Source: Agrococcus baldri (GTDB lineage: Bacteria > Actinomycetota > Actinomycetes > Actinomycetales > Microbacteriaceae). From it: a DNA stretch of 64,000 nt. The position numbers and the translations under genes were made by a program. Each line of letters opens with the position of its first letter. Position 1 is the first letter of the stretch. The notes beneath the pieces are model-generated. The model did not search any database, had not been told where the DNA came from, and saw only the letters and a program-made list of their open reading frames with translations. Location: contig BJUU01000004.1 in assembly GCA_007988785.1 (NCBI GenBank), forward strand, positions 1-64,000, read 5' to 3'. Below, piece after piece: positions 2,983-60,757 of the stretch.

Positions 2983-3112
2983 CCGAGCTTCCCCGAATGG
3001 TGCGCCTGCGCCTCACAACGCACCATCTCGGGAAGCTCGCCAGCGGGTGCATGCGCGAGCTTCCCCGAATGGTGCGGTTGCGGCGAGAAGCGCACCATCT
3101 CGGGAAGCTCGC
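2983..3112. repeat. Paired 58-nt palindromic element, locus 1
   Basis: Two 58-nt units (2983-3040 and 3055-3112) are separated by 14 nt, a 72-nt period. Each begins with CCGAGCTTCCCC or GCGAGCTTCCCC and ends with CGGGAAGCTCGC. The terminal arms can pair, and a second inverted repeat (ATGGTGCG / CGCACCAT) lies inside. Two other loci in the window carry the same pair in the opposite internal orientation. The pair fills most of the 298-bp gap between glpX and the acyltransferase-like gene. Imperfect CGCATCCGCCCCACGCCG repeats sit just before it. Confidence 0.85.
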
Positions 3113-24485: not shown

Positions 24486-25904
24486 GTGAACGACGTCGAC
24501 TACCGGATCGAGCACGACACGATGGGCGAGGTGCGCGTGCCCAAGGATGCGCTGTACGCGGCGCAGACGCAGCGCGCGGTCGAGAACTTCCCGATCTCGG
24601 GCACGGGGCTCGAGCCCGCGCAGATCGTCGCGCTCGCGCGCATCAAGCGCGCCGCGGCGCTCGCGAACAAGGAGCTCGGCACGGTCGAGGCGTCGATCGC
24701 CGACGCGATCGTCGCTGCCGCCGACGAGGTCATCGGCGGCGCGCACCACGACCAGTTCCCGATCGACACGTACCAGACCGGCTCCGGCACCTCGTCGAAC
24801 ATGAACATGAACGAGGTGCTCGCGACCCTCGCGACGAGGCACCTCGCCGCCGCCGGCGGTGACGGCGCCGTGCACCCGAACGACCACGTGAACGCCTCGC
24901 AGTCGTCGAACGACGTCTTCCCCACCTCCGTGCACATCGCCGTCACGGGCGCGCTCATCGAGCAGGCCGTCCCGGCGCTCGAGCACCTGGCAGCGGCGCT
25001 CGAGGAGAAGGCGGCGCTGTGGGCCGAGGCCGTCAAGCCCGGCCGCACGCACCTGATGGATGCCACGCCCGTCACGCTCGGCCAGGAGTTCGGCGGCTAC
25101 GCCGCGCAGATCCGCTACGGCATCGAGCGCATCCAGGCGGCGCTCCCCCGGGTGGCCGAGGTGCCGCAGGGCGGCACGGCCGTCGGCACCGGCATCAACA
25201 CGCCGCTCGGCTTCCCGGAGAAGGTCATCGCCGAGATCGCCGCCTCGAGCGGGCTGCCGATCACCGAGGCGCGCAACCACTTCGAGGCGCAGGCCAACCG
25301 CGACGGCCTCGTGGAGGCATCCGGGGCCCTGCGCACCATCGCGGTGTCGCTGACGAAGATCAACAACGACCTGCGCTGGATGGGCTCGGGCCCCAACACG
25401 GGCCTCGGCGAGCTGCGCATCCCCGACCTGCAGCCGGGCTCGTCGATCATGCCGGGCAAGGTCAACCCGGTGGTGCCGGAGGCCGTGCTGATGGTGTGCG
25501 CGCGCATCATCGGCAACGACGCGACCGTCGCGTGGGCCGGCGCCTCGGGCTCGTTCGAGCTCAACGTGCAGATCCCCGTCATGGGCACGGCGCTGCTCGA
25601 GTCGATCCGGCTGCTCTCGAACGCCTCGCGCGTGCTCGCCGACAAGACCGTCGCCGGGCTCGAGGCCGATCTCGAGCGCGCGGCGGCGCTCGCGGGCATG
25701 AGCCCCTCGATCGTCACGCCGCTCAACCGCCTGATCGGCTACGAGGCGGCCGCGAAGATCGCGAAGCACTCGGTCGCGCAGGGCATCACCGTGCGCGAGG
25801 CGGTCATCGACCTCGGCTACGTCGAGCGCGGCGAGCTCACCGAGGCCGACATGGACAAGGCGCTCGACCTGCTCTCGATGACGCACCCGGGCGTCGCCAA
25901 GTAG
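24486..25904 (+). CDS. fumC: Fumarate hydratase, class II
   Basis: The 472-residue iron-independent fumarase interconverts fumarate and malate in the citric acid cycle. Signature motifs are [25 protein letters not shown] and [16 protein letters not shown], then the family stamp [11 protein letters not shown] at about residue 320. The length fits FumC. The GTG start has AAAGGGA 7 nt upstream. A 53-bp terminator-like sequence follows the stop codon directly and is repeated after lpqB. Confidence 0.96.
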
Positions 25905-25952
25905 CGCGCTGGAGCTGAGGGCGGAGGTCCTTTCGGACCTCCGCCGCGACGC
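25900..25952 (+). repeat. 53-bp terminator-like repeat, copy after fumC
   Basis: The sequence begins at the TAG stop and contains the hairpin GGCGGAGGTCC-TTTC-GGACCTCCGCC (11-bp stem). An exact reverse-complement copy lies at 60705-60757, also abutting a TAG stop (lpqB). Both copies can end transcription of the upstream gene. Confidence 0.85.
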
Positions 25953-25982
25953 GAGCGCCGACGCCCGTCTCGGGCGTCGGGC

Positions 25983-26112
25983 TCGAGGCGCCACGAAGGG
26001 CGCGTTTCGACGCGGAACCGCACGCTTCGAGGAAGCTCGCCGAGCCACCGTTCGCCGAGCTTCCCCGAGCAGCGCGTCTCGACGCGGAACCGCACGCTTC
26101 AGGGAAGCTCGC
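25983..26112. repeat. Paired 58-nt palindromic element, locus 2
   Basis: Two units start at 25983 and 26055, again 72 nt apart. The right unit is complete (CCGAGCTTCCCC to AGGGAAGCTCGC). The left unit keeps its core and right arm but its left arm is degraded (GGCGCCACGAAG in place of the TTCCCC block). The pair lies between convergent fumC and the M20 hydrolase. A GACGCCCG/CGGGCGTC hairpin precedes it. Confidence 0.8.
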
Positions 26113-26120
26113 CGATTCGC

Positions 26121-27716
26121 TTACCAGCGGCGGCTGTCGTCCGCGCCGGCGTAGTCGGGCCACGGCAGCTCGATGGGCGCCTCGAAGTCGGCAGGCAGCA
26201 GCGCCGGCATCGGCTCGGCCGCGACGCGCTCGTCGAACTCCGCCTTCGCCGCGGCGAGCAGCTCGGGCCGCGTCAGCAGGTCGAGGAAGGTGCCGGCGAC
26301 CGTCTTGCCGGCCGTCACGATCGTCGGCGCGATGGTCGCGGGGATGCCGCCGAGCGCGTTCATCACCCACGCCGGGTACGGCCCCTGCCCCTCGACCGGC
26401 TGCAGCGCCGGCCGTGAGACGTAGAAGCGCACGAGCGGAGCGTAGTGGCTCATCTCGACGTAGTCGTCGCTCGTCCAGTTGCGCTGCCAGGCGGGCATGT
26501 GCTCGCGCAGCGCCCGCTCGGCCTCCTGCGGCGTGATGAGCTGCTCGGTCTGCGCGAGGAAGGGCTTCTCGGCCGGCTCGAGGCCCAGCGAGCGCTGCAT
26601 CTCCTGCGCCACCGCGATCGCGTCGTCGCCGTACGACGGCGCCCCCACCTGCTCGAGGTTGTCGTAGAGCACCTCGGCCATCGCGTGGTTCGTGCGCCCG
26701 GGGCGGCTGCGCGCCACCCAGCGCTCCTCGAGCTCGCAGTGGCCCATCATCGACGCGGCCTGCGCGTTGCGGTCGAGCACCGCGAGGATGCGCTCGGCCA
26801 TCTGGATGTCGGGCGTGCGCCACGAGAACTGGATGCGCGCGACGCGCTGCGGCAGGTTGTCGGCCGTCGCCTGCCCGTCGCTGAGGATGGCGTCGGAGAA
26901 GCTCCAGCCGCCGGTGGCGGGCAGCATCGAGTCGAGCATCGTGCGCGAGGCCGTGTACATCTGCATGAGCGACACGTTCGCGCCCGGGGCCCGCGCCGCC
27001 GAGTGCGAGGCGGGGATGGGCGAGCCGGGGTCGAGCACACCGTGGTCGGCGCTCGAGACCTGCCAGGTCTCCGGGTGGTCGCAGACGAACGTGTAGACCT
27101 TCGAGTAGTAGGCGCCGCACTGCGTGTCCCAGCGGGCCGTGTTGCACAGCGGCAGCATGTAGAAGGGGTGGAAGGAGACGATCGCGTCGGCGTCGTCGTA
27201 GTAGCCGCGCAGCCCGTGCACGACCTTCGAGCCGTGCATCTTCTCGGCCGGCTCGCCCGTGTAGTGCAGGGTGCCGGCGATGCCGTGCTGCTGCATCGCG
27301 TGCTTGGTCGCGAGCACGCCCGCGAGCGTCGAGATGCCGAGCGCCGAGTGCGGGTCGGTGTGGCCGGGCGCGAAGCGCGTGAGCCCCTCGCGCGGCGACT
27401 CGCTCGTGGTCGCGGCCTGGCTGTTGCCCGGCACTGCGTCGTACTCGGCGTAGGTCAGCAGGGTGGGGGCCGACCCATCCGCCGGCCCGTTCGACCAGCG
27501 CGCGCTGAAGGCGGTGGGCATGCCCGCCGAGCCGTCCTCCACCTCGAAGCCCTGCTCGCGCAGCAGCTCGACGTACCAGCGCTGCGAGCGGTACTCGCGC
27601 CAGGCGGGCTCGGCGAGCTCCCAGATGTGGCTGTGCCACTCGGTCAGCTGCGCCAGGTGCTCGTCGATCCAGGCCCGGGCGGTGGCCTTCGCGTCGTCGG
27701 TGAGCTGCATCGTCAT
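26121..27716 (-). CDS. M20 amidohydrolase, AbgB-like
   Basis: The roughly 530-residue M20-family hydrolase resembles the AbgB p-aminobenzoyl-glutamate hydrolase group. Metal-site motifs are LLTYAEYDAVPGNSQAA, PGHTDPHSALG, YTGEPAEKMHGSKVVHGLRG, VSFHPFY and a late GRTNHAMAEVLYDN. Such enzymes cleave an amide bond of a modified amino acid. Three in-frame starts exist (27719, 27716, 27710), and 27716 is favoured because AAGGAA lies 7 nt before it. It is the last gene of the five-gene minus-strand operon. The partner substrate is unknown. Confidence 0.82.
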   Translation of the reverse strand: MTMQLTDDAKATARAWIDEHLAQLTEWHSHIWELAEPAWREYRSQRWYVELLREQGFEVEDGSAGMPTAFSARWSNGPADGSAPTLLTYAEYDAVPGNSQAATTSESPREGLTRFAPGHTDPHSALGISTLAGVLATKHAMQQHGIAGTLHYTGEPAEKMHGSKVVHGLRGYYDDADAIVSFHPFYMLPLCNTARWDTQCGAYYSKVYTFVCDHPETWQVSSADHGVLDPGSPIPASHSAARAPGANVSLMQMYTASRTMLDSMLPATGGWSFSDAILSDGQATADNLPQRVARIQFSWRTPDIQMAERILAVLDRNAQAASMMGHCELEERWVARSRPGRTNHAMAEVLYDNLEQVGAPSYGDDAIAVAQEMQRSLGLEPAEKPFLAQTEQLITPQEAERALREHMPAWQRNWTSDDYVEMSHYAPLVRFYVSRPALQPVEGQGPYPAWVMNALGGIPATIAPTIVTAGKTVAGTFLDLLTRPELLAAAKAEFDERVAAEPMPALLPADFEAPIELPWPDYAGADDSRRW

Positions 27717-27759
27717 CACTGCTTCCTTGCTGGGGTGGTCGGGCGGATGGCGGGGCCCG

Positions 27760-36914: not shown

Positions 36915-37044
36915 GCGAGCTTCCCCGAAGCGCGCGTTTCGACGCTGAACCGCACCTCCTGGGGAAGCTCGCCGACCCGCCGTTCCGCGAGCTTCCCCGA
37001 AGCGCGCGTTTCGACGCTGAACGGCACGGTTCGGGGAAGCTCGC
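36915..37044. repeat. Paired 58-nt palindromic element, locus 3
   Basis: Two complete units (36915-36972 and 36987-37044) are spaced at the same 72-nt period. Both begin GCGAGCTTCCCC and end GGGGAAGCTCGC (12-bp perfect arms) with cores that differ by a few bases. The 14-nt spacer resembles that of locus 2. The pair lies between the aminotransferase and the prolyl oligopeptidase genes. Confidence 0.9.
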
Positions 37045-46907: not shown

Positions 46908-46940
46908 GCCGCACGGACCGGGTCGGCGCGCACGACCGAG

Positions 46941-46982
46941 CCCCGCGCATCCGCCGCGTCTGAGACGAGCGGATGCGCGGGG
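46941..46982. terminator. Terminator between the exporter and metI
   Basis: A perfect 14-bp stem, CCCCGCGCATCCGC and GCGGATGCGCGGGG, with a 14-nt loop lies between convergent genes. Confidence 0.85.
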
Positions 46983-47004
46983 CGCGGTCGGTGCCGCGGC
47001 TGCC

Positions 47005-48776: not shown

Positions 48777-48836
48777 GGCGAGTGTGCACTTCCGGCGGTG
48801 GCAGCGGCGCTGCTGCGCAGGAAGTGCACACTCGCC
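48777..48836. repeat. 60-nt palindrome between metN and metQ
   Basis: Perfect 17-bp arms (GGCGAGTGTGCACTTCC and GGAAGTGCACACTCGCC) enclose a 26-nt loop that can itself fold (GCAGCG/CGCTGC). The GCGAG...CTTCC and GGAAG...CTCGC ends echo the 58-nt element at other loci. It lies inside the met operon and may act as a processing or attenuation hairpin. Confidence 0.75.
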
Positions 48837-60611: not shown

Positions 60612-60704
60612 GCGGGGAGCATGACGGGCGGATGCGCGGGCCCGCTCGAGCGGGCAGGGTGCCTGTGGAGAGGGGCCCGGGGCCCGGGACGGGCCCCGGC
60701 GCTG

Positions 60705-60757
60705 GCGTCGCGGCGGAGGTCCGAAAGGACCTCCGCCCTCAGCTCCAGCGCGCTACT
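60705..60757 (-). repeat. 53-bp terminator-like repeat, copy after lpqB
   Basis: This is the exact reverse complement of 25900-25952. It abuts the TAG of lpqB in the same way the other copy abuts the fumC TAG. The central 11-bp hairpin (GGCGGAGGTCC/GGACCTCCGCC) can end the mtrB-lpqB transcript. Confidence 0.85.

What the first reader, a model, noticed from the sequence alone, without database searches (positions are those of the whole stretch)
2983..3112. A dispersed 58-nt palindromic element, found six times at three intergenic loci
Seen: units at 2983, 3055, 25983, 26055, 36915 and 36987. Five keep GCGAGCTTCCC-type and GGGAAGCTCGC-type ends, while the unit at 25983 has a degraded left arm. 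The cores share GCG(C/T)TTC and AACCGCAC once locus 1 is turned over. Every copy is intergenic and no transposase is in the window. This looks like a REP/BIME-like element that I do not recognise as described for this group. It could be a mobile palindrome, an RNA structure or a nucleoid-protein site.
Basis: seen in the sequence. Interest (0 to 1): 0.8.

Follow-up and report, generated by a model that had tools for sequence, protein, structure and literature searches.

The report
Dispersed palindromes linked to a nuclease
Short mirror-image DNA repeats scattered between the genes of an Agrococcus bacterium are of the same family as repeats that bracket a nuclease-like gene, and similar gene-plus-repeat sets occur in related bacteria, which suggests an undescribed kind of mobile DNA that spreads without a known transposase.

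Summary
The six units are real: 58-nt imperfect palindromes in three intergenic pairs, each spaced exactly 72 bp. A model search finds 30 units at 18 sites in this Agrococcus genome. The REP/RAYT label fails on enzyme, tag and size. Instead, the same units bracket a ~325-aa gene on another contig: AbiEi-like N-terminus, C-terminus weakly like Vsr-fold nucleases. Its orthologue occurs in 6 of 24 Agrococcus genomes, bracketed in all six, and these six carry the most units. Paralogues are often bracketed by their own, different repeats: left/right flank similarity beats controls at 45 of 54 usable Agrococcus loci and 41 of 65 loci in 27 other Actinomycetota genomes. Two gene-bearing sites are empty or hold other palindromes in relatives. 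Of 90 extracted units, 88 are intergenic. Best reading: non-autonomous copies of a nuclease-linked mobile element that works like a REPtron with an unrelated enzyme. Mobility and enzyme action are inferred. Against it: G012 has about six units without the gene; G008's dispersed units differ from those beside its gene; a second palindrome family occurs where no cognate gene was found.

The parts
2983..3040 (.). palindromic unit 1a (outermost bases C..C, not paired)
   Evidence: (E 8.2e-17)
3055..3112 (.). palindromic unit 1b, 72 bp after 1a
   Evidence: (E 6.0e-18)
25983..26040 (.). palindromic unit 2a, left arm degraded
   Evidence: (E 2.2e-6)
26055..26112 (.). palindromic unit 2b, 72 bp after 2a; between convergent genes (24486-25904 +, 26121-27719 -)
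   Evidence: (E 8.2e-16)
36915..36972 (.). palindromic unit 3a, between an aminotransferase gene and a prolyl oligopeptidase gene
   Evidence: (E 1.5e-16)
36987..37044 (.). palindromic unit 3b, 72 bp after 3a; a unit pair also lies upstream of the orthologous peptidase gene in G005 and a single variant in G012
   Evidence: (E 3.8e-17)

Best explanation
The units are non-autonomous copies of a nuclease-linked mobile palindrome. The full element is [palindrome(s)]-[AbiEi-like/Vsr-like gene, about 325 aa]-[palindrome(s)], about 1.1-1.4 kb; in this genome it sits between purK and purE. Shown: palindromes bracket the gene in all six orthologues found; the six genomes with the gene are those with most units; two gene-bearing sites are short or hold other palindrome families in relatives; many other members of the protein family have matched repeats of their own on both sides; units lie behind genes. 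Inferred: the protein (perhaps as a dimer, since each unit is a 56-57 bp two-fold site) recognises its own palindrome, cuts or nicks DNA, and repair copies the palindrome into new intergenic places, where a hairpin behind a gene is tolerated or even useful. In G000 and G005 the copied unit is mostly a 72-bp-spaced pair.
For: Bracketing in 6 of 6 orthologues. Co-occurrence in 24 genomes: with the orthologue 59, 58, 40, 37, 23, 20 model hits (both strands counted); without it 12, 4, and 0-2 in the other 16. Paralogues: 45 of 54 usable Agrococcus loci score above 20, 38 of them with a palindrome in the shared segment; outside the genus 41 of 65 loci exceed all 3212 between-family pairings, the shared segment overlapping a palindrome in 32 of 41 versus 13.9 expected; ordinary window genes: 1 of 58 above 18.5, at 19.0. 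Sites: purK-purE 43-129 nt in 12 of 23 genomes; acs-ridA 5 nt in G017 and 1.1-1.4 kb with the gene in G008, G015, G019, G023. Location: 88 of 90 units intergenic, 42 convergent, 44 same-strand, 2 divergent, both at the nuclease's own 5' side. Domain: MTES_1575 in 24 and DUF559 in 14 of 27 members at E<=0.01; PDB profile hits 3hrl 9.7e-4 and PvuRts1I 1.3e-3.
Against: No movement was seen; no target-site duplication could be read, as filled and empty sites were too diverged. G012 (99% complete) has 12 hits, about 6 units, and no orthologue. In G008 the dispersed 57-nt singles do not resemble the 56-nt pairs beside its gene. Of seven unit pairs 0.9-1.7 kb apart that I opened, five enclose the gene and two (G019:C58, G008:C1:828771) enclose other genes. 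A second family (GGTCACGACACGCCG) has 4, 3, 3, 4 exact copies in G000, G003, G008, G019; a cognate gene was seen in G003 (reading frame split) and, with the repeat on one side, at a contig end in G019 (flank score 13, under threshold), not among the 5 members examined in G000 (a later profile counts 7) nor the 4 in G008. Nine of 54 Agrococcus and 24 of 65 other loci miss the flank threshold; some positives are short direct-repeat arrays. Domain matches of the orthologue group itself are weak or absent, and the structure model was unusable.
Confidence: 0.62

Rival explanations
1. The palindromes are transcription terminators or mRNA 3'-end stabilisers kept by selection; the nuclease gene is a passenger.
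For: Units lie behind genes and hardly ever between divergent genes (no baseline for intergenic regions was computed); five of six window units fold strongly; in G006, G007 and G013 a palindrome of another family stands directly behind the gene where G003, G017 and G020 have a plain terminator-like hairpin.
Against: TTTT within 10 nt at 0 of 180 sides; arms are specific per family; inner-stem covariation weak (0.635 vs 0.613 sd 0.014; 0.733 vs 0.715 sd 0.012); it does not explain why the same palindrome brackets the nuclease-like gene. It could be a later use of a mobile element.
Confidence: 0.15
2. MITE- or REP-like elements moved by an unidentified transposase in trans; the nuclease element is a hitch-hiker.
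For: Size, inverted ends, dispersal and patchy distribution; two of seven opened unit pairs enclose unrelated genes.
Against: No Y1_Tnp in the genome (no other transposase family was searched). Members of one protein family have matched repeats on both sides at many independent-looking loci, which a random passenger would not.
Confidence: 0.12
3. The palindromes are binding sites by which the AbiEi-like protein regulates itself or shapes the chromosome; dispersal is by ordinary duplication and gene conversion.
For: AbiEi-like N-terminus (PADLOC AbiEi model 6.3e-12); near-constant 72-bp spacing; units on the gene's 5' side.
Against: Dispersed units are not between divergent genes; brackets lie on the 3' side as well; gene-bearing sites are short in relatives.
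Confidence: 0.1

Closest known systems
REP/BIME and the RAYT (TnpA-REP) REPtron
   Same: Dispersed extragenic palindromes, single or in pairs, close to the 3' ends of genes and between convergent genes; a gene flanked by the same palindromes (passages of PMC3733652 and PMC8266576).
   Different: Unit 58 nt, no GTAG/CGTC tag, no Y1 match in this genome; the enzyme is AbiEi/Vsr-like; several palindrome families side by side, each with its own paralogue. PMC3733652 (passage) sees no obvious correlation between tyrosine transposase genes and REP/TIR families, whereas here gene and unit number go together in the genus.
EDxHD homing endonucleases such as I-Bth0305I
   Same: Insignificant profile match to 3r3p, mobile intron protein (E 0.62); that 3r3p is I-Bth0305I is recalled. 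I-Bth0305I is described as dimerising on a target of nearly 60 bp (PMC3943268, passages), near the 56-57 bp of the units.
   Different: No intron or intein seen; gene free-standing between palindromes; dispersed gene-less palindromes.
AbiEi antitoxin-like proteins; DUF559 and MTES_1575 (Vsr-fold) domains
   Same: AbiEi-like N-terminus and MTES_1575/DUF559 C-terminus; the MTES_1575 domain was described as a Vsr-family REase (PMC3710099, passages).
   Different: The passages seen treat it in large HEPN/R-M-like proteins and say nothing of flanking palindromes.

Membership tests
REP/RAYT system | Y1 (HUH) tyrosine transposase in the genome | tested here: not met
   PF01797: 0 matches in G000, control positive in 5 of 14 genomes; other genomes of the genus not searched
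REP/RAYT system | terminal GTAG or CGTC tag | tested here: not met
   ends of the intact window units are (G/C)CGAGCTTCCC...GGGAAGCTCGC
REP/RAYT system | palindrome of 20-40 bp (20-50 nt in another paper) | tested here: not met
   56-57 nt between arms inclusive, 58-59 with the outer base; definitions
REP/RAYT system | extragenic, 3' of genes | tested here: met
   88 of 90 intergenic, divergent only beside the nuclease gene
MITE of an insertion sequence | target-site duplication | tested here: inconclusive
   flanks of filled and empty sites too diverged
MITE of an insertion sequence | parent transposase with the same ends | tested here: inconclusive
   the gene between the units is nuclease-like; only Y1_Tnp was searched as a transposase
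homing endonuclease element (EDxHD) | EDxHD/Vsr-type catalytic domain | tested here: inconclusive
   MTES_1575 in 24 of 27; invariant E190, E232, H238, D248; 3r3p E 0.62
homing endonuclease element (EDxHD) | cleavage of the empty site | not testable with these tools
   needs biochemistry
intrinsic terminator | hairpin followed by U-tract | tested here: not met
   TTTT within 10 nt at 0 of 180 sides of 90 units

The most novel reading that the evidence does not exclude
A class of mobile elements, widespread in Actinomycetota, in which a Vsr-fold, AbiEi-headed nuclease and not a transposase spreads its own ~57-bp palindrome through intergenic DNA, each paralogue with its own palindrome family.
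Probability: 0.5. Interest if true: 0.9.

Novelty: categorically new. Interest (0 to 1): 0.8.

Why it matters
Members of this protein family, of unknown role, occur in 40 of 119 sampled Actinomycetota genomes at E<=1e-12, up to 14 per genome, and these genomes also carry unexplained intergenic palindromes. Linking the two gives the genes a testable function and would add a second, unrelated enzyme class to REP-like palindrome spread, which the papers seen tie to HUH transposases.

Tried and rejected
DNA uptake sequence: the exact 10-nt arm occurs 59 times in the genome (reversed control 30); by my count 46 of the 59 lie in the 30 units, so there is no large pool of single arms. Rfam: no family at gathering score in the window. 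RNA-structure selection: within genomes covariation is weak, so the both-sides-changed pairs of the cross-genome alignment (7 of 17 pairs) should not be read as strong evidence. Relatives in viral contigs: 57 stretches matched a pattern, none confirmed. Plasmids: 1 of 72,556 records holds a relative of one paralogue at E<=1e-15; its flanks were not analysed. Cross-locus controls: those in the genus (maximum 321.5) and the first at phylum level (maximum 232, 0 of 65 above it) were swamped by orthologous loci in related genomes; I then restricted the control to pairs from different taxonomic families, after seeing that result. The 65 loci were picked by me from a capped list: 27 of the 30 loci (L110 is this genome; L121 and L125 dropped, near contig ends) plus 38 of 40 further stretches (L119 a repeat, L328 a contig end); 30 of the 65 come from one family, f6, and may be partly orthologous. 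The 55 Agrococcus loci are 55 of the 84 matches, with one unusable; several are orthologous to each other. The threshold of 20 there is taken; G005's own gene, plainly bracketed, scores 20.0 and counts as a miss. Literature: ten searches of open-access papers listed no work on palindromes bracketing DUF559/AbiEi/Vsr-like genes; most subscription papers and preprints are outside that library. Four papers were seen as passages only (PMC3733652, PMC8266576, PMC3943268, PMC3710099), the rest as listings.

Full report
OBSERVATION. An exact arm pattern gives 14 matches at 12 places in the genome G000 and none with the reversed control pattern. A covariance model built from 21 units (12 from G000, 9 from named Agrococcus records) finds 30 places at E<=0.002 in G000, which I group into 18 sites, 11 of them tandem. 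The genus is Agrococcus by the pattern scan of named contigs: all 9 stretches found are Agrococcus.

DISTRIBUTION. In 24 Agrococcus genomes the model matches in 15 at E<=0.001. Hits, counted on both strands: 59 (G000), 58 (G005), 40 (G019), 37 (G008), 23 (G015), 20 (G023), 12 (G012), 4 (G016), 2 in each of G002, G009 and G010, 1 in each of G017, G018, G020 and G021, and 0 in nine. The tool scored the 150 best of several thousand first-look candidates per genome, so counts could be low. The model was trained on units of G000, G019, G023 and G012; G005, G008 and G015 are independent of it.

THE PARTNER GENE. I opened seven unit pairs 0.9-1.7 kb apart: five enclose a ~325-aa gene of one family (G000, G005, G015, G019:C69, G023), two enclose other genes (G019:C58 and G008:C1:828771). 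In G000 the gene lies at C13:48900-49871 between purK and purE, with two units on each side. PurE is supported by Pfam AIRC; the names purK, acs, ridA and fumC are my reading of the sequences and come from no call. A profile of the five proteins finds the orthologue (508 bits or more; next best 106) in exactly six of 24 genomes: G000, G005, G008, G015, G019 and G023, the six with most units. If genomes were exchangeable such a separation would have a chance of 1 in 134,596 (my arithmetic); they are related, so this is only indicative. All six are bracketed: two units on each side in G000 and G008, three and two in G005 counting degraded ones, one and one in the rest. In G015 and G019 the 3' unit overlaps the end of the reading frame.

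PROTEIN. The G000 protein's N-terminus matches AbiEi_4 at 2.7e-5, just under Pfam's cut-off, and a PADLOC AbiEi model at 6.3e-12 (that model matches 9 of 27 members). Of 27 aligned paralogues 24 match MTES_1575 and 14 DUF559 at E<=0.01; among the five orthologues scanned MTES_1575 is weak in two (0.0037, 0.025) and absent in three. Invariant columns include E190, E232, H238 and D248. Against the PDB the profile finds an endonuclease-like protein 3hrl (9.7e-4), PvuRts1I (1.3e-3) and, insignificantly, the mobile intron protein 3r3p (0.62). The MTES_1575 domain was described as a Vsr-family REase (PMC3710099, passages).

GENERALITY. Each Agrococcus genome has 2-5 family members at E<=1e-10 (84 in all). 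Many have a matched palindrome of their own sequence family on each side. Comparing the left with the right flank at 55 of the 84 loci, one unusable: 45 of 54 score above 20, 38 of these with a palindrome in the shared segment. Outside the genus, 41 of 65 loci from 27 genomes exceed all 3212 left/right pairings between different taxonomic families (maximum 20.0); 32 of the 41 shared segments overlap a palindrome on the left side versus 13.9 expected for random segments. Of these, 22 of 30 are from one family of large genomes (f6) and 19 of 35 from the rest. Among 58 ordinary genes of the window one exceeds 18.5, at 19.0. Of 119 sampled genomes of the phylum 40 have a member. For one non-Agrococcus element (G031) the exact palindrome occurs at both brackets and once elsewhere, and in none of seven other genomes.

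SITES. purK-purE, 23 genomes: in 12 the gap is 43-129 nt from the end of the purK match; G000 and G005 hold this element; G003, G018 and G023 hold other family members with other palindromes; G016, and G019 at a contig end, show palindrome pieces and no such gene in the stretch seen; G013 has another neighbour. acs-ridA, 21 genomes shown: 5 nt in G017, 38 in G014; this element in G008, G015, G019 and G023; other palindromes in G006, G007, G013, G009, G010 and others. The region before the peptidase gene, window locus 3: pairs in G000 and G005, a variant single in G012, other palindromes in several, only a plain terminator-like hairpin in G003, G017 and G020 (neighbours differ in some genomes). 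So the same few sites are filled by different palindrome families.

UNITS. From loci chosen among the model hits, 90 units fit an arm pattern (degraded ones are left out): 88 are intergenic; the two coding ones are the nuclease ends; 42 lie between convergent and 44 between same-strand genes, 2 between divergent genes, both beside the nuclease gene. No baseline for intergenic regions was computed. Spacing of neighbouring units is 72 in 15 of 16. For 26 pairs of orthologous sites the unit cores are no more alike (mean 0.71) than units within a genome (0.74, 0.75), so units are genome-specific, through turnover, conversion or saturation. Units beside the gene are most like the dispersed units of their own genome in G000, G005, G019 and G023, some by only 0.01, tie in G015, and not in G008. 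One unit is shared almost unchanged between G015 and G009 (0.97), so some copies are simply inherited.

MECHANISM. Shown: association, bracketing, short versus filled sites, location. Inferred: recognition of the palindrome, cutting, and copying by repair. I-Bth0305I, an EDxHD homing endonuclease, is described as dimerising on a target of nearly 60 bp (PMC3943268, passages); a 56-57 bp two-fold unit would suit such a dimer. This is a lead, not a test.

STATUS. It works like a REPtron but fails three defining tests of REP/RAYT (enzyme, tag, size). I call it categorically new in kind as far as ten open-access searches show, with mobility unproven.

Noticed in passing
window 25900-25982 and 60675-60757: An 83-nt double-hairpin stretch occurs twice in opposite orientation (93% complementary), the first copy directly beside unit pair 2.
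   Followed up: no
window 48777-48836 and 46933-46990: Two further strong intergenic palindromes of 60 and 58 nt with other arms; the first (GAGTGTGCACTTCC) resembles the GTGTGCAGTTC arms beside the G000:C12 family member.
   Followed up: no
L101, L103, L200, L349, L335, L338: These paralogues are flanked by arrays of short direct repeats of about 20 nt (such as CCTGAGTGGCGCCTCCCGCA) rather than one long palindrome.
   Followed up: no
L265, L266 (G010, G009 acs-ridA site): Long palindromes of the type TCGAGTAGGCCCGC...GCGGCGCTACTCGA fill the convergent site in tandem, without the gene in the 216- and 193-nt gaps.
   Followed up: no
L061 and L062 (nuclease 3' end): The last codons of the gene are written inside the palindrome in G015 and G019.
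   Followed up: partly
L204 (G003 purK-purE): The family member here has its reading frame split; three exact palindromes of its family lie elsewhere in the genome.
   Followed up: partly
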